This document shows positions 23,194 to 53,230 of a stretch of 64,000 nt of DNA, piece by piece. The notes under the pieces were generated by a model. It saw nothing but the letters and a program-made list of their open reading frames with translations. It was not told the origin of the DNA and ran no database searches. Source of the DNA: Haloplanus sp. HW8-1 (lineage in GTDB: Archaea > Halobacteriota > Halobacteria > Halobacteriales > Haloferacaceae); NCBI RefSeq assembly GCF_023703795.1, contig NZ_CP098518.1:806001-870000 (forward strand). Reading direction: 5' to 3'. The position numbers were made by a program, and so were the translations under genes. How positions within the stretch are numbered: position 1 is the first letter of the stretch; each line of letters opens with the position of its first letter.

Positions 23194-24452
23194 GCGGGGA
23201 GGCGGCCGACGCCGGCGAGGGCGACCCCGCCGTGCGGCGACTCGCCGACTGGTCGGCCGCCGACCTGCGGGACCTGGCCGCGGAGTACGGCACGCCGCTG
23301 TACGTCACCGACCTCGACCGGGTGCGGGAGAACGCGAGGCGTCTGCGGGCGGCCTTCCCCGCCGCCGACGTGAAGTACGCCGTGAAGGCTCACACCGGAC
23401 GGGCCGTCCTCGAAACCGTCCGCGAGGCCGGCCTCGGCGCCGAGTGTGCGTCGGCGGGCGAGGTGGTCCGCACCCTCGACGCCGGCTACGAGGCGGTCCA
23501 GTACACGGCGGTCAACCCGCCCGCCGAGGACCTCGACGTCGTCGTCTCGCGGTGGGACGCGGGCGCGGACCTGACCGTCGTCGCCGGGGCACGTGATACG
23601 CTCGATCGGCTCCGAGAGCGGGGGTTCGACGGCCGACTGGCGATTCGGGTGAACCCCGGCGTCGGCGCCGGCCACCACGAGAAGGTGACCACGGGCGGCC
23701 ACGCCAAGTTCGGCGTCCCCTACGACCGCGCGGCCGACACCGTTGCCGACGCCCGGGCGGACTTCGACGTGGTCGGGATCCACGCCCACGCCGGCAGCGG
23801 CATCAGCGGCGACGACCTCGCCGAGCATCGCGAACTCGTCGCCCGGATGGGCGATCTGGACCGAGAGGTCGGCGATCTGGAGTTCGTCGACGTCGGCGGC
23901 GGCTTCGGCGTACCCTACCGCGAGGACGAACCCCCGCTGGATCTGCCCGCGGTCGCCACGGCGACCCGCGAGGCACTCGGCGACGTGGACGCGACCCTGG
24001 CCGTCGAACCCGGACGCTACGTCGTGGCCGACGCGGGCGTCCTCCTGACCCGCGTCAACACGGTGAAGCCGGTCGACGACGCGGGCGCGGCGGGTGCGGT
24101 GCCCGTCGTCGCCGGCGTCGACGCCGGCATGACCACCCTGCTCCGGCCGGCGATGTACGACGCCTACCACGCGATTCGGAATCTGACCGACGAGCGCCCC
24201 GAGCGACCGGTCACCGTCGCCGGCCCGGTCTGTGAGACGGCCGATCTGTTCTGCGAGGAGCGGCCACTGCCGACGCCGCGCCGGGACGACCTGCTGGCCA
24301 TCGGTTCGGCCGGCGCCTACGGCTACGAGATGGCGAGCACGTACAACTCCCGGCCGCGGCCGGCGGAGGTCGTCTTGGCGGACGGCGACCCCCGGATCGC
24401 CCGCGAACGCGAGACCCTCGCCGCCCTCACCGATCTGGAGGTGGACGGATGA
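23190..24452 (+). CDS. lysA: Diaminopimelate decarboxylase
   Basis: 420 residues. PLP lysine in VKYAVKAHTG near residue 66, Gly-rich phosphate loop VDVGGGFGVPY, the His/Ala stretch IHAHAGSGIS and the C-terminal CETADLFC and AYGYEMAS motifs of the fold-III decarboxylases. It releases CO2 from meso-DAP to give lysine, the last step of the pathway. The ATG at 23190 overlaps the dapD stop; the frame is open further upstream inside dapD, but that part is not coding. It sits before dapF and dapE although it acts last. Confidence 0.95.
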   Translation: MSGEAADAGEGDPAVRRLADWSAADLRDLAAEYGTPLYVTDLDRVRENARRLRAAFPAADVKYAVKAHTGRAVLETVREAGLGAECASAGEVVRTLDAGYEAVQYTAVNPPAEDLDVVVSRWDAGADLTVVAGARDTLDRLRERGFDGRLAIRVNPGVGAGHHEKVTTGGHAKFGVPYDRAADTVADARADFDVVGIHAHAGSGISGDDLAEHRELVARMGDLDREVGDLEFVDVGGGFGVPYREDEPPLDLPAVATATREALGDVDATLAVEPGRYVVADAGVLLTRVNTVKPVDDAGAAGAVPVVAGVDAGMTTLLRPAMYDAYHAIRNLTDERPERPVTVAGPVCETADLFCEERPLPTPRRDDLLAIGSAGAYGYEMASTYNSRPRPAEVVLADGDPRIARERETLAALTDLEVDG

Positions 24453-28333: not shown

Positions 28334-29113
28334 ATGCAGGGACAAGCCCAACAGCAGGCCTACGACCGCGGGATAACGATCTTCTCGCCCGATGGCCGCC
28401 TCTATCAGGTCGAATACGCCCGAGAGGCCGTCAAGCGAGGGACAGCGAGTATCGGCATCCGAACCGAGGACGGCGTGGTACTGGCGGCGGATAAACGCTC
28501 CCGGTCGCCACTGATGGAGCCGACGAGCGTCGAGAAGATCCACAAGGCGGACGACCACGCGGGCATCGCGTCGGCCGGCCACGTGGCCGACGCCCGCCAA
28601 CTCATCGACTTCGCCCGCCGGCAGGCCCAGATCAACCGCCTGCGATACAGTGAACCGATCGGTATCGAGGCGCTCACGAAGGAAGTTACCGACCACATCC
28701 AGCAGTACACGCAGGTCGGGGGTGCCCGCCCGTTCGGCGTCGCGCTTCTCATCGGTGGGATCGAGGACGGCGAACCCCGCCTCTACGAGACCGACCCCTC
28801 GGGAACGCCCTACGAGTGGAAGGCGGTCTCCATCGGCGCGAACCGCGGTGATCTCCAGGAGTACCTCGAGGAGAACTACGAGGACGGCCTCGACCTCGAC
28901 GGCGGTATCGCGCTCGCGCTTCGGGCGCTGGCGACCACCAACGACGACAGTCTCGAACCGGCCGGCGTCGACGTGGCGACAGTCAGCCTCGACACCGAGG
29001 CGTTCCACGAACTCGACAACGACGAGATCGAGACTCACCTCGCCGACCTCGACCTCCTCCCGGACGACGAGGACGAGGACGATGACGCGGATGTGGACGC
29101 CGACGAGGAGTAG
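28334..29113 (+). CDS. psmA: Proteasome subunit alpha
   Basis: 259 residues. It has the alpha-type N-terminal helix (YDRGITIFSPDGRLYQVEYA) that shapes the gate, then KRGTASIGIRTEDGVVLAADKR and the full Ntn fold without a catalytic Thr at the N-terminus. The C-terminal tail is a run of Asp and Glu, usual in haloarchaea. Seven subunits form each outer ring of the 20S proteasome. The ATG at 28334 matches the conserved haloarchaeal start MQGQAQQQAYD; a frame open to 28202 runs through the leader only. It is followed by a large inverted repeat. Confidence 0.97.
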   Translation: MQGQAQQQAYDRGITIFSPDGRLYQVEYAREAVKRGTASIGIRTEDGVVLAADKRSRSPLMEPTSVEKIHKADDHAGIASAGHVADARQLIDFARRQAQINRLRYSEPIGIEALTKEVTDHIQQYTQVGGARPFGVALLIGGIEDGEPRLYETDPSGTPYEWKAVSIGANRGDLQEYLEENYEDGLDLDGGIALALRALATTNDDSLEPAGVDVATVSLDTEAFHELDNDEIETHLADLDLLPDDEDEDDDADVDADEE

Positions 29114-29171
29114 TCGCCGCCGCGACCGACCGCTCTCTTTCCTTTCTCGTCTCGTGCAGGAACGCCCTCAT

Positions 29172-29249
29172 ACGGAGTATTGTAACTGTTTACCGGTGGT
29201 TCGCCGAGACGGTCCGGCGAACCACCGGTAATGGCTTACAATAAACCGT
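29172..29249. repeat. Large near-perfect inverted repeat between convergent genes
   Basis: Arms 29172-29206 and 29215-29249 around an 8-base centre. The inner 17 bp pair perfectly (TTACCGGTGGTTCGCCG against its complement at 29215-29231). The outer parts match again at TATTGTAA/TTACAATA and at ACGG/CCGT with a few mismatches, so each arm is 35 bases. It sits between the psmA stop (29113) and the stop of the minus-strand regulator (29251), where it could fold in either transcript. It is not an oligo-T terminator. Confidence 0.8.
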
Positions 29250-29250
29250 A

Positions 29251-29607
29251 TCAGTACTCCTCGTACGCCAGATTCATCAGCCACTGCGAGAAGGCGTCGC
29301 TCCGTGGATCGACCTCCTCCTCGCCGATGAACGGCGAGAGCATGTCCCCGGCCATCAGCAGCGAGAAGTCGAGGTCACGTGCCGTCGGCATCAGGAAATA
29401 CGTGTTGTGTCCTTGGTAGACGGTCTCTTCGCGCCGGATGAGCGTCTGTTCGACCAGGGATTCGGCGATGCGACTGCCCTTCCGCGAGGAGATGTCGAGT
29501 TCCTTCCACAGTTCGCTCTGGTGGATCCCGCGTGTTTCGCGGATGAGTTCGAGTGCGGCGCGCTCGTCGGTCGAGAGGTCGGCGTCCGGGCCCTCGGCAG
29601 CGCTCAT
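29251..29607 (-). CDS. Winged-helix DNA-binding protein (MarR/Lrp-like)
   Basis: 118 residues. A winged helix at about residues 14-75: LSTDERAALELIRETRGIHQ, SELWKELDISSRKGSRIAESL (recognition helix) and a wing TLIRREETVYQGHNTYFL. The C-terminal ~45 residues are acidic and unknown. The ATG at 29607 is chosen because a Shine-Dalgarno GGAGGT lies six bases upstream and a TATA-like ATTTAAAC at 29665-29672 gives a short leader; an ATG at 29649 is possible but less supported. It converges on psmA. Targets unknown. Confidence 0.8.
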   Translation of the reverse strand: MSAAEGPDADLSTDERAALELIRETRGIHQSELWKELDISSRKGSRIAESLVEQTLIRREETVYQGHNTYFLMPTARDLDFSLLMAGDMLSPFIGEEEVDPRSDAFSQWLMNLAYEEY

Positions 29608-30477: not shown

Positions 30478-32916
30478 TCATTCCCGCCACCCGTCGGGTG
30501 TCGCTGCGGCGTCGTCGGTCGCGACCGCGGTGCGGACGGCGGCCACGTTCTCCGCCACGTCGTGGACCCGAACGATGTCGACACCGCGGTCGACGGCCAG
30601 CGCCGTCGTCGCGACGGTCGCCGGAAGCCGCTCGCCGGCCTCCTGGCCGACGTGGGCGAACATTGACTTGTGTGAGTGTCCCAGGAGGACCGGACAGCCG
30701 AGCGCCCGGAACTCTTCGAGGCGGTCGAGGAGTTCGAAGTTCTCGACGGCCGATTTCCCGAAGCCCAGGCCGGGATCGACGATCACTTTCTCGCGATCGA
30801 GACCGGCGCGTTCGGCCAGCGCCACGCGCTCCGCGAGTTCGTCGATCACGTCCGACACCACGTCGTCGTACGGGACGTCCCTGTCGGGGACGACCGGCGC
30901 GTCGATGCTGTGCATCACGACGACCGGCACGTCGTATTCGGCGGCCACGAAGCGCATCTCGGGGTCGGCCAGCCCCGTCACGTCGTTGAGAACGTCCGCG
31001 CCGGCGTCCAGGGCCGCCCGGGCCACCGCGGCCTTTCGGGTGTCGATCGACACCATGGCGTCGAGGTCGTGGAGCGCCTCGATCACCGGACGCACGCGCT
31101 CGATCTCCTCCGTGACGGGGACCGGATCGGCGCCCGGGCGCGTACTCTCGCCGCCGACGTCGATCACGTCCGCGCCCGCTGCGACCATCGCCTCGGCGCG
31201 CTCGACGGCCGCGCTCGGGTCGAAGTACTCGCCGCCGTCGTGGAAACTGTCGGGGGTCACGTTGAGGATACCCATGACCGACGGCCGTTCCTCCCAGGGA
31301 TACCCGTGAGTGGGGACGCTGTCGCCGAGTCGGTCGGCGAGTCGGTCGGCGACCCCAGACAGTTCCCCGTCGAGGTCGGCGGCGAGCGCGCGGAGTTCGG
31401 CGTCCGTCCCGGCGATCACCGCCTCCCGGAGTTCGCGCCCCGTGCGGTACTCGGACGTGACGGCGGTCGCGCCGGCCCGGCCGGCGACCCGTTCGACCGT
31501 CCGTGCCTCCCGGCGATCGAGGCGGATCGTCACGACGCGATGGACGCCCTCGCCGATCACGTCGGCCCCCACGTCGGCGCCGGAGCGGTCGAACACGGCG
31601 GCCGCGTCGTCCACGGTGTCGATCCGACGCGAGACTGCGAGCCGCGACCAGGTGCGGCGAGCCTCGGCGACGGCGAACAGCGAGCCGACGACGAGAACGC
31701 AGTCGTCGGGAGCGGCGGCGGCCCGGGCGCGGTCGAGACCGGCCGCGACCGTCGGTACCGCCGCCACGTCGGTCACGCCGGCCGACTCGAAGGCCGCGGC
31801 GAGCACCGCCGGATCGGCCGCGCGCTCGTGTTCCGGGGCACAGGCCTGCACCGACGCGACAGCCGGGAGTTCCGCGACCATCTTTCGGTGATCCTTGTCG
31901 TGCATCGCGCCGAAGACGAGGTGGAGGGCCGCGTAGTCGTACTCGTCGAGGGTCTCCGCCACCGCGCGACACGCCCCGGGGTTGTGTGCGCCGTCGAGGA
32001 CGACCAGCGGATCGCGGTCCACGACCTCGAACCGGCCGGGCCAGTGAGCACCCCGGAGGCCGTTCGCGATGGCGGCGGCGTCGACACGGTCGCCGCCGGC
32101 CTGCCTCGCGAGGACGGCAGCGACGCCGGCATTACGCGCCTGATACGCGCCTGGCATCGGCACGCGAGTGTCGACGTCCCAGTCCGCGCCCGAGATCGCG
32201 ACGCCGGCCTCGGTGTGATTGACGAGGCCGTCGTAGGCGACCGTCACGTCGGGTGTCTCCTCGGCGAACCCGACGGTCAGTGCGTCGGGGGCGTGCCGCC
32301 GGACGGCCGTCCGTGCCTCGCCGGTCGCCCCCGTCACCAGCGGCGCGTCCGCGGGGGCGACGGTGACTTTCTCGGCCGCAATATCGTCGAGGGTGTCGCC
32401 CAGGATGTCGGTGTGTTCCAGGCTCACCGCCGTCACCGCGGCGGCAACCGGGTCGACGACGCTCGTCGCGTCGAGCCGGCCACCCATCCCCACCTCCAGC
32501 ACCGCCACGTCGACCGCCGAACGGCCGAAATACCAGAGGCTCATCGCCGTGAGCGCCTCGAAGGACGTGATCGGGTCGCCCTCGACCGCCCGATCGACGA
32601 GGAACGGGCGCACCCGCTCGACGAAGTCGACGACCGCGGACTCGGGGATCCGTCGGCCGTCGACGCGGATCCGTTCGCGTACGTCGTCGAAATGCGGCGA
32701 CGTGTACAGCCCAACCCGGTAGCCCGCTTCCCGGAGGATCGACTCCGTCATGCGGGCCGTACTCCCCTTGCCGTTCGAGCCCGCGACCTGCACGAACTCG
32801 ACGGTCTCGTGTGGGTCGTCGAGGTGGGCCAGCAGGGCACGGATCGACTCCGTCCCCGGGTCGAGCGCGAACCGGCGGAGGTCGGAGAGAAAGTCCGCCG
32901 CGGCGTGATAATCCAT
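30478..32916 (-). CDS. folCP: Bifunctional folylpolyglutamate synthase / dihydropteroate synthase
   Basis: 812 residues, two enzymes fused. Residues 1-~425 are FolC (Mur-ligase type): ATP loop VAGSNGKGSTARM near 44, the later GGRLDATSVVDP and DGAHNPGACRA. Residues ~545-805 are dihydropteroate synthase: GILNVTPDSFHDGG, DVGGESTRPGA, SIDTRKAAV and GHSHKSMF. About 120 residues between them are of unclear role. The protein would make dihydropteroate and then add glutamate to folates. The fusion is known from haloarchaea such as Haloferax. Start at 32916 matches FolC length; a double hairpin lies just upstream. Confidence 0.93.
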   Translation of the reverse strand: MDYHAAADFLSDLRRFALDPGTESIRALLAHLDDPHETVEFVQVAGSNGKGSTARMTESILREAGYRVGLYTSPHFDDVRERIRVDGRRIPESAVVDFVERVRPFLVDRAVEGDPITSFEALTAMSLWYFGRSAVDVAVLEVGMGGRLDATSVVDPVAAAVTAVSLEHTDILGDTLDDIAAEKVTVAPADAPLVTGATGEARTAVRRHAPDALTVGFAEETPDVTVAYDGLVNHTEAGVAISGADWDVDTRVPMPGAYQARNAGVAAVLARQAGGDRVDAAAIANGLRGAHWPGRFEVVDRDPLVVLDGAHNPGACRAVAETLDEYDYAALHLVFGAMHDKDHRKMVAELPAVASVQACAPEHERAADPAVLAAAFESAGVTDVAAVPTVAAGLDRARAAAAPDDCVLVVGSLFAVAEARRTWSRLAVSRRIDTVDDAAAVFDRSGADVGADVIGEGVHRVVTIRLDRREARTVERVAGRAGATAVTSEYRTGRELREAVIAGTDAELRALAADLDGELSGVADRLADRLGDSVPTHGYPWEERPSVMGILNVTPDSFHDGGEYFDPSAAVERAEAMVAAGADVIDVGGESTRPGADPVPVTEEIERVRPVIEALHDLDAMVSIDTRKAAVARAALDAGADVLNDVTGLADPEMRFVAAEYDVPVVVMHSIDAPVVPDRDVPYDDVVSDVIDELAERVALAERAGLDREKVIVDPGLGFGKSAVENFELLDRLEEFRALGCPVLLGHSHKSMFAHVGQEAGERLPATVATTALAVDRGVDIVRVHDVAENVAAVRTAVATDDAAATPDGWRE

Positions 32917-53038: not shown

Positions 53039-53230
53039 TCACCCCGAGTCGCGGTGTCGACGCACCGCCCACAGCACGAGGAGCAGTCCCTCGATGCGGG
53101 CGGCGGTGTACACCCAGCGGCGTGGCGTGGCGTCGCCTTCGGTCGCTAGGTTCAGCCAGACGTCGACGAGTCGGCGGGGACGGAACGCCTCGGCGAGGCC
53201 GAGCGCCAGTGCGGCGATACGGAGGAGCAT
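53039..53230 (-). CDS. Small membrane-associated hypothetical protein
   Basis: 63 residues. MLLRIAALALGLAEAF is a hydrophobic start, then a basic loop RPRRLVDVWLNLA, and a second hydrophobic part RIEGLLLVLWAV before a basic end. Similar short proteins are found in haloarchaea. A TATA-like ATAACAATTAG on the minus strand lies about 27 bases upstream (53251-53262), which supports expression. Function unknown. Confidence 0.62.
   Translation of the reverse strand: MLLRIAALALGLAEAFRPRRLVDVWLNLATEGDATPRRWVYTAARIEGLLLVLWAVRRHRDSG

What the first reader, a model, noticed from the sequence alone, without database searches (positions are those of the whole stretch)
29172..29249. 78-base near-perfect palindrome after psmA
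Two 35-base arms with a perfect 17-bp inner stem and an 8-base centre stand between converging genes. This is far longer than needed for chance and is not the U-tract kind of archaeal terminator. It may be a bidirectional 3'-end processing hairpin or a small mobile palindromic element.
Basis: seen in the sequence. Interest (0 to 1): 0.55.

Follow-up and report, generated by a model that had tools for sequence, protein, structure and literature searches.

The report
Mobile hairpin inserted at stop codon
The palindrome is one copy of an 80-base jumping hairpin found in many salt-loving archaea; it carries no gene and often lands exactly on a gene's stop codon, where the 3 bases copied on insertion leave the stop intact.

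Summary
The palindrome is real and is not a psmA feature. The unit is 80 bp (29171-29250), flanked on both sides by TCA. The right TCA (29251-29253) is the TGA stop codon of the minus-strand gene convergent with psmA. The own genome holds 16 near-full-length copies plus a few partial ones; five congeners show 39-103 end-motif hits each; relatives match in 63 of 391 sampled genomes of the class. Identical 3-bp flanks (85 of 112), empty orthologous sites and nested insertions mark a mobile, non-coding, MITE-like element with a TNA target duplication. The target resembles the dyad GWCTNAGWC. In the main set, 71 of 97 copies sit exactly on a crude-called gene stop, against 8.6% of free TNA sites; on plasmid pHmuk01, 4 of 5 copies followed abut an annotated stop. 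The hairpin is kept by compensatory changes around a conserved unpaired block. No insertion sequence with these ends was found among the transposase loci tested; a DDE transposase acting in trans is inferred. An effect on mRNA 3' ends was not testable. Verdict: new variant of a known kind.

The parts
29171..29250 (.). 80-bp mobile palindromic element (TACGG...CCGTA)
   Evidence: boundaries set by aligned copies and 3-bp direct flanks
29168..29170 (.). left copy of the 3-bp target duplication (TCA)
   Evidence: identical 3-bp flanks in 85 of 112 extracted elements
29251..29253 (-). right copy of the target duplication (TCA) = TGA stop codon of the minus-strand wHTH-like gene
   Evidence: TCA stands at this place in 6 of the 8 congeners compared, TTA in G024, CTA in G111
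29171..29185 (.). outer stem, left arm (pairs with 29236-29250, one mismatch column)
   Evidence: pair counts on A1, helix 1: 95.7% of cells paired
29236..29250 (.). outer stem, right arm
29186..29190 (.). left side of the conserved internal mismatch block (CTGTT); overlaps a TTGTAA-N4-TTACC box at 29180-29194
   Evidence: C.C in 78, G.G in 76 and T.T in 70 of 80 oriented copies; box
29231..29235 (.). right side of the internal mismatch block; second TTGTAA-N4-TTACC box on the minus strand at 29227-29241
29191..29206 (.). inner stem, left arm
   Evidence: helix 2 (13 pairs counted): 10 of 13 pairs with compensatory change
29207..29214 (.). apical loop AGACGGTC
29215..29230 (.). inner stem, right arm
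29251..29607 (-). host gene: small winged-helix/HTH-like protein whose TGA stop was the insertion target (start codon chosen by eye)
   Evidence: ORF; weak B-block_TFIIIC and HVO_A0261_N matches, both below cut-off
28334..29113 (+). psmA (proteasome alpha subunit), convergent neighbour, not the insertion target
   Evidence: Pfam PF00227 and PF10584

Best explanation
The palindrome is one insertion of a haloarchaeal, non-coding, hairpin-forming mobile element of about 80 bp. SHOWN: it is repeated; it ends in inverted repeats; it is flanked by a 3-bp direct repeat of the form TNA; it is absent from orthologous sites in related species; occupied stops share a dyad-like context GWCTNAGWC; and most copies in the main set lie exactly on a stop codon, nearly always TGA, where the target duplication leaves one TGA as the gene's stop. 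INFERRED: a DDE-type transposase supplied in trans recognises the paired TTGTAA-N4-TTAC boxes, cuts at TACGG/CCGTA and inserts by a 3-bp staggered cut at TNA. INFERRED: stop codons are hit because the last codon plus TGA often fits the target and because insertion there is harmless; part of the bias may be true targeting. INFERRED: the hairpin is conserved because the element is recognised or processed as a hairpin, in DNA or in RNA. Any effect on mRNA 3' ends would be a by-product or an exaptation.
For: Copies: 16 near-full-length in the own genome; 21 of 148 same-family genomes, 12 of them of the own genus; 39-103 end-motif hits per genome in 5 congeners, 0-1 in reversed controls; 63 of 391 class genomes. 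Target duplication: 85 of 112 with identical 3-bp flanks: 43 TCA, 36 TGA, 3 TTA, 2 TAA, 1 ACT; 0 with 4 bp; 30 of 40 in other genera. Empty sites. Nested insertions: (3 of 4 long forms tested). Stop-codon siting; annotation on pHmuk01, 4 of 5 copies followed. Identical element at two loci of G033. Compensatory changes: (18 of 27 pairs; covariation 0.395 vs 0.137 shuffled).
Against: No transposase with these ends was found: none of 19 DDE_Tnp_1 loci in the own genome has a matching pair of ends; none of the 30 fetched of 35 matches in three further genomes; no DDE_Tnp_4 in the own genome; no IS-length partner seen in 20 regions of G187. 27 of 112 elements lack an exact 3-bp repeat. Length and interior are conserved, unusual for a MITE (recalled). 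Stop-codon preference may partly reflect survival, not targeting, and in the 40 loci of other genera only 15 pass the strict ORF test. Some decayed duplications lose the copy that could act as stop (TGG/TGA 1; GGA/TGA 2 and CGA/TGA 1). At the psmA site the gaps of G062, G046 and G083 score 31, 26 and 25 against the element, above the shuffled 95th percentile of 24 but below each shuffled maximum, so a decayed copy, in G083 above all, is possible and the insertion may be older than the own species.
Confidence: 0.88

Rival explanations
1. A bidirectional transcription terminator or 3'-end processing hairpin kept by selection at the ends of convergent genes, without mobility of its own.
For: Stable hairpin; sits at gene ends; pairing conserved by compensatory change. 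In Haloferax volcanii hairpins lie upstream of 503 termination sites and one tested hairpin terminated 59% of transcripts (PMC7237163, passages read).
Against: No intact palindrome at the orthologous psmA site in the 8 congeners compared. The direct TNA flanks are not part of a hairpin. Nested insertions. Copies at stops stand in tandem as well as convergent contexts (25 +-, 20 ++, 23 --). No T-run follows either arm.
Confidence: 0.05
2. The element is mobile AND serves the host as a portable 3'-end module; copies at stop codons are enriched because they are useful, not only harmless.
For: The excess at stops persists after weighting sites by target preference: 24 of 28 vs 0.54 expected in convergent gaps, 19 of 23 vs 0.20 and 23 of 29 vs 0.22 in tandem gaps. 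Decayed duplications TGA/CGA (5) and TCG/TCA (4) keep the copy that can serve as stop. Pairing is maintained.
Against: Copies differ between species and decay (70-96% identity to consensus among 80 oriented copies). Keeping the stop-proximal copy needs only selection on the stop codon, and contrary decays exist (TGG/TGA 1; GGA/TGA 2, CGA/TGA 1). No RNA data.
Confidence: 0.25
3. A REP-like palindrome moved by an HUH (Y1) transposase, as REPs are by RAYTs, or a PATE moved by IS200/IS605 machinery.
For: Imperfect hairpin with conserved mismatches, no linked transposase found, and high copy number resemble REP/RAYT logic (recalled).
Against: IS605-type elements and PATEs make no target duplication (Table 4 of PMC3119063, passage), whereas these copies carry one whose centre base does not follow the element's orientation (oriented elements: 36 TGA/TGA and 22 TCA/TCA; 18 and 12). 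Y1 transposases were not searched.
Confidence: 0.07

Closest known systems
[quoted passage not shown]
   Same: short, non-coding, terminal inverted repeats, target-site duplication, multicopy, intergenic
   Different: no parent IS sharing the ends was found in what was searched; 80-bp length and hairpin conserved across families of the class; often placed on stop codons
Small mobile repeats (SMR) of Haloquadratum walsbyi, e.g. HqIRS41 of 80 bp (PMC3119063, passages)
   Same: haloarchaeal, 80-110 bp, inverted ends, mode of mobilisation unknown
   Different: SMRs are reported to make no target duplication and to hit other mobile elements; here a TNA duplication and stop codons. The HqIRS41 sequence was not seen (supplements not readable), so common descent is not excluded
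IS5-superfamily elements of the IS1031 type and PIF/Harbinger Tourist MITEs (recalled)
   Same: 3-bp TNA/TWA duplication inside a short palindromic target
   Different: no such transposase found with these ends
REP/BIME palindromes with RAYT; PATEs
   Same: imperfect hairpins, high copy, extragenic
   Different: PATEs make no target duplication (PMC3119063, passage; for REPs recalled); REPs are 20-40 bp (PMC3733652, abstract opening in a search listing)
Correia, ERIC and SPRITE elements of bacteria
   Same: small mobile sequences; Correia and ERIC affect the transcripts that hold them (PMC10969869, passages; SPRITE only from its abbreviation list)
   Different: different hosts and sequences; the words 'stop codon' do not occur in that review's main text

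Membership tests
MITE | short, non-coding, terminal inverted repeats | tested here: met
   80 bp, arms 29 of 35 complementary
MITE | target-site duplication | tested here: met
   3-bp repeat in 85 of 112 elements; empty sites
MITE | multicopy and mobile | tested here: met
MITE | parent transposon sharing the ends | tested here: inconclusive
   none of 49 DDE_Tnp_1 loci in 4 genomes has a matching pair of ends; other transposase families were not searched, apart from DDE_Tnp_4 in the own genome (none)
Small mobile repeat (SMR) | inverted ends unrelated to known transposons | tested here: inconclusive
   no related IS found; ISfinder not available
Small mobile repeat (SMR) | no target duplication | tested here: not met
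   3-bp duplication
PATE / IS200-IS605 derivative | no terminal inverted repeats and no target duplication | tested here: not met
   has both
REP / RAYT | 20-40 bp palindrome | tested here: not met
   80 bp
REP / RAYT | moved by a Y1 transposase | not tested
   Y1 transposases were not searched
IS1031/Harbinger-type MITE | 3-bp TNA duplication in a palindromic target | tested here: met
   context GWC-TNA-GWC at 68 occupied TGA stops against 149 free ones; the upstream G hardly differs, 63% vs 58%; the family feature itself is recalled
IS1031/Harbinger-type MITE | mobilised by an IS5-superfamily transposase | not testable with these tools
   needs a transposition assay
archaeal U-tract terminator | T-run at the 3' end | tested here: not met
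   no T-run follows on either strand (sequence)
Rfam RNA family | score above gathering threshold | tested here: not met
   best match 21.2 bits vs threshold 64 (window 28900-29500)

The most novel reading that the evidence does not exclude
A class-wide haloarchaeal family of 80-bp hairpin elements is moved by an orphan, perhaps domesticated transposase that reads the hairpin and directs insertion to gene ends, so that each jump adds a ready-made 3' hairpin directly behind an intact stop codon: a mobile, self-healing 3'-UTR module.
Probability: 0.25. Interest if true: 0.85.

Novelty: new variant of a known kind. Interest (0 to 1): 0.6.

Why it matters
It gives haloarchaea a counterpart of the bacterial mobile hairpins, with an unusual way of staying harmless: the target duplication leaves a working stop codon. 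It offers natural insertion/no-insertion pairs between related species (probably Haloplanus; also Halomicrobium mukohataei) in which to ask whether a hairpin behind the stop codon changes archaeal 3' ends, and it poses a defined search for the missing transposase.

Tried and rejected
I looked only at L067, L116 and L123; of these only L067 (Haloplanus ruber) reads as a degenerate copy. Viral-contig scan with the 16-nt end pattern: 18 stretches, none with a second arm. Phage records: no match at E 1e-5.

Hunt for the parent IS: 19 DDE_Tnp_1 loci in the own genome (single end-like matches at 3-4 mismatches in several, no pair), DDE_Tnp_4 (none), 30 of 35 DDE_Tnp_1 matches in G187, G101 and G090, single arms in G101 and G187. 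No IS emerged; the single arms looked at read as truncated or decayed copies, or as chance motifs. Rfam: nothing near threshold.

'Conserved psmA terminator' was rejected: 8 of the 11 other genus genomes were compared and keep the gene pair without an intact palindrome. G101 and G106 have the two genes rearranged or apart and G116 has no match, so they were not compared. Local scores against the element are 17-31 in the 8 gaps, own 152; G062, G046 and G083 exceed the shuffled 95th percentile, none the maximum. G062 carries a sister-family element in its gap (read by eye).

Purely neutral siting was considered. Site-weighted controls lower but do not remove the stop-codon excess. The gene calls are crude and the elements are related copies, so the p-values are only indicative.

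Some orthologue comparisons were uninformative (L137/L198 lacks one flank; L204/L203 ambiguous).

Rows dropped: of 55 references prepared, 46 went into alignment A1 with the window's own; L284, L286, L301, L318, L320, L321, L251, L252 and L013 were left out without a written rule (some near-duplicates, some decayed).

Literature: searches list no title or abstract opening that describes a stop-codon-sited haloarchaeal palindrome. Only the top 15-20 papers of each were listed, only open-licence papers are held, supplements were not readable, and ISfinder could not be consulted.

Full report
OBSERVATION. The palindrome is present as described and exceptional. The 17-bp inner stem with an 8-base centre is exact, 35-nt arms match at 29 of 35, and none of 286 other tiles of the window exceeds 25. 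The RNA fold has z -8.1. The repeating unit is 80 bp, 29171-29250 (TACGG...CCGTA), flanked by TCA on both sides.

SURROUNDINGS. psmA ends at 29113, 57 bp before the element. On the other side the element directly abuts a minus-strand gene for a small wHTH-like protein (Pfam matches below cut-off). The right-hand TCA (29251-29253) is that gene's TGA stop codon.

COPIES. The search of the own genome (3.84 Mb; 40 of 59 candidates scored) gives 16 copies covering at least 78 of the 82 query bases, two of 65-73 bases and several fragments, all of these on contig C1. One more 80-bp copy appears by its ends (L255). In the same taxonomic family 21 of 148 genomes match at E 1e-6: 12 of the own genus, counting the window's, and 9 of other genera. 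End-motif counts in five congeners are 39-103 against 0-1 in reversed controls. Across the class 63 of 391 genomes and 26 of 86 genera match (where only two candidates per genome were scored, so this is a lower bound); matches outside the own family often cover all 82 bases at 74-82% identity. The only plasmid hit at E 1e-5 is Haloplanus sp. GDY1 (83.5%) and H. ruber has a degenerate copy, so the window is probably Haloplanus; this is inferred. G187 is Halomicrobium mukohataei DSM 12286, inferred because one of its contigs has the exact length of pHmuk01 and an element at the same coordinates. It shows 85 + 80 core-motif hits (normally two per element) against 5 + 6 in controls.

MOBILITY. A script extracted 112 element candidates from the fetched loci of G000, G101, G062 and others (overlapping long forms included); 80 of 112 are exactly 80 bp. 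The 3 bp on each side are identical in 85 of 112 (43 TCA, 36 TGA, 3 TTA, 2 TAA, 1 ACT) and 4 bp in none. The middle base is the same on both sides, not complementary, so it is not an extension of the palindrome. Both TGA and TCA occur in elements oriented by their asymmetric arms (36 and 22), so it is not part of the element. Among 40 elements of other genera, 30 have identical flanks (18 TGA, 12 TCA). Orthologous empty sites: of the 8 congeners compared, which keep the psmA/wHTH pair, none has an intact palindrome, and 6 of 8 have TCA at the stop. Further examples are L015 vs L240 and L011 vs L177. L009 and L181 carry an element at the same stop, an old shared copy or two independent hits. 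In three of the 8 psmA gaps (G062, G046, G083) the local score against the element slightly exceeds the shuffled 95th percentile; G083 also has the same gap length and a colinear weak match, possibly a decayed copy. Of four long forms tested, three resolve into an 80-bp outer element plus a 76-78-bp sister element with a TGA or TCA duplication. One pair of identical copies stands at two loci of G033.

STOP CODONS. With a crude codon-model gene caller (412 genes on 85 loci), 71 of 97 elements of 78-81 bp lie exactly at a called stop (68 TGA, 2 TAA, 1 TAG), 26 are intergenic and none is inside a called gene. Of unoccupied TNA sites outside genes or at stops, 199 of 2305 (8.6%) are stops. By context: convergent 25 of 30 vs 0.455; ++ 20 of 25 vs 0.163; -- 23 of 29 vs 0.162; divergent 0 of 5, where no stops exist; 8 elements have an unclear context. 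Occupied TGA stops differ from free ones most at -1 (C 76% vs 42%), +5 (C 68% vs 35%), +4 (A or T 52% vs 27%), -2 (A or T 74% vs 52%) and +3 (G 49% vs 31%); G at -3 hardly differs (63% vs 58%). Together they read as the dyad GWC-TNA-GWC. Weighting sites by the downstream half of this preference, mirrored, lowers the contrast but leaves it: 24 of 28 vs 0.54, 19 of 23 vs 0.20, 23 of 29 vs 0.22. An ORF-only test agrees: 68 of 90 elements with a stop-type flank end a frame of at least 60 codons with GC3 at least 0.75, against 9.7% of 4936 TGA triplets in the same loci. In the 40 loci of other genera only 15 pass that strict test, and no control was run there.

Annotation gives an independent check. 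On pHmuk01, 4 of the 5 copies followed directly abut an annotated stop codon; the fifth overlaps a hypothetical ORF. A sixth motif place in the capped list (149505) was not followed. Halomontanus rarus adds one copy at a PHP-domain gene. The copies looked at on Haloplanus, Natronomonas and Natrinema plasmids abut no listed gene, though that gene table is incomplete.

STRUCTURE. On 47 aligned elements (46 distinct; 46 of 55 prepared references plus the window's), 27 designed pairs are 93.2% paired (79.5% shuffled), 18 pairs show two-sided changes, and the covariation score is 0.395 vs 0.137; slid versions fall to 23-46% paired. One pair, columns 22/59, is unpaired in 18 sequences. RNAalifold on the same alignment finds the same two helices and leaves columns 16-22 and 59-65 unpaired. 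In 80 oriented copies, nearly all of the genus, this block shows C.C at 16/65 in 78, G.G at 18/63 in 76 and T.T at 19/62 in 70. In other genera the letters of the block vary, except C16, which is invariant in A1. Caveat: arm-to-arm copying inside a palindrome can also produce compensatory changes, so this does not by itself prove an RNA role.

MECHANISM. A 3-bp staggered insertion into a dyad target points to a DDE transposase acting on paired boxes; the resemblance to IS1031-type and Harbinger elements is recalled, not tested. No parent IS was found among 49 DDE_Tnp_1 loci in four genomes, nor as a long-range partner of the single arms examined. Either it belongs to an unsearched family, or it is an orphan gene unlinked to such ends, or it is lost in the genomes examined. 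Insertion at a TGA leaves TGA-element-TGA, so the gene keeps its stop. Nine duplications decayed in one copy (TGA/CGA 5, TCG/TCA 4) keep the triplet that can act as the stop; a few contrary cases exist (TGG/TGA 1; GGA/TGA 2 and CGA/TGA 1).

COMPARISON AND NOVELTY. The nearest description in the papers searched is the small mobile repeats of Haloquadratum (passages of PMC3119063): 80-110 bp, inverted ends, mobilisation enigmatic, but without target duplication and aimed at other mobile elements. A 2024 review of prokaryotic MITEs does not contain 'stop codon' (PMC10969869, term search). Haloferax hairpins can terminate transcription (PMC7237163, passages), so a 3'-end effect is plausible but untested. 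I file this as a new variant of a known kind.

Noticed in passing
L193:329-487, L193:2827-2987, L192:2082-2242; G062 psmA gap (L202): A sister family of 76-78-bp palindromes (ends GAGG/TAGG, stem with GAGAATCT) that inserts with the same kind of TNA duplication, three times into a TGA/TCA of the first family's internal block; the G062 copy was read by eye.
   Followed up: partly
G187 (Halomicrobium mukohataei) C2, e.g. 23531-23592, 53057-53118, 191927-191988: A second numerous subfamily with arms TTGTAGGCGTTTACCC / TTGTAGGTCTTTACCA at constant spacing in the pairs listed, suggesting recent activity.
   Followed up: no
L149 = L319 (G057), L148 (G124), L298, L308: Variants whose outer five bases differ (TAGTG...CACTA, TAGGG...CCCTA) while the TTGTAA-N4-TTAC box is kept: the cut ends drift, the inner box much less.
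   Followed up: partly
L216 (G090) versus L155 (G116): At an orthologous convergent gene pair one genome has an element at the minus gene's TCA, the other an element at the plus gene's TGA: apparently two independent insertions on the two stops.
   Followed up: partly
L175:3302-3470 (G101): A half element after a TGA, followed about 100 bp downstream by what looks like a tRNA gene; not checked with ARAGORN.
   Followed up: no
window 30478-32916 (-): 812-aa frame that reads as a folylpolyglutamate synthase-like plus dihydropteroate synthase-like fusion (by eye, from recall).
   Followed up: no
G083 gap between psmA and the wHTH gene (L196): Same-length, weakly colinear stretch that may be a decayed copy at the same stop codon.
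   Followed up: partly
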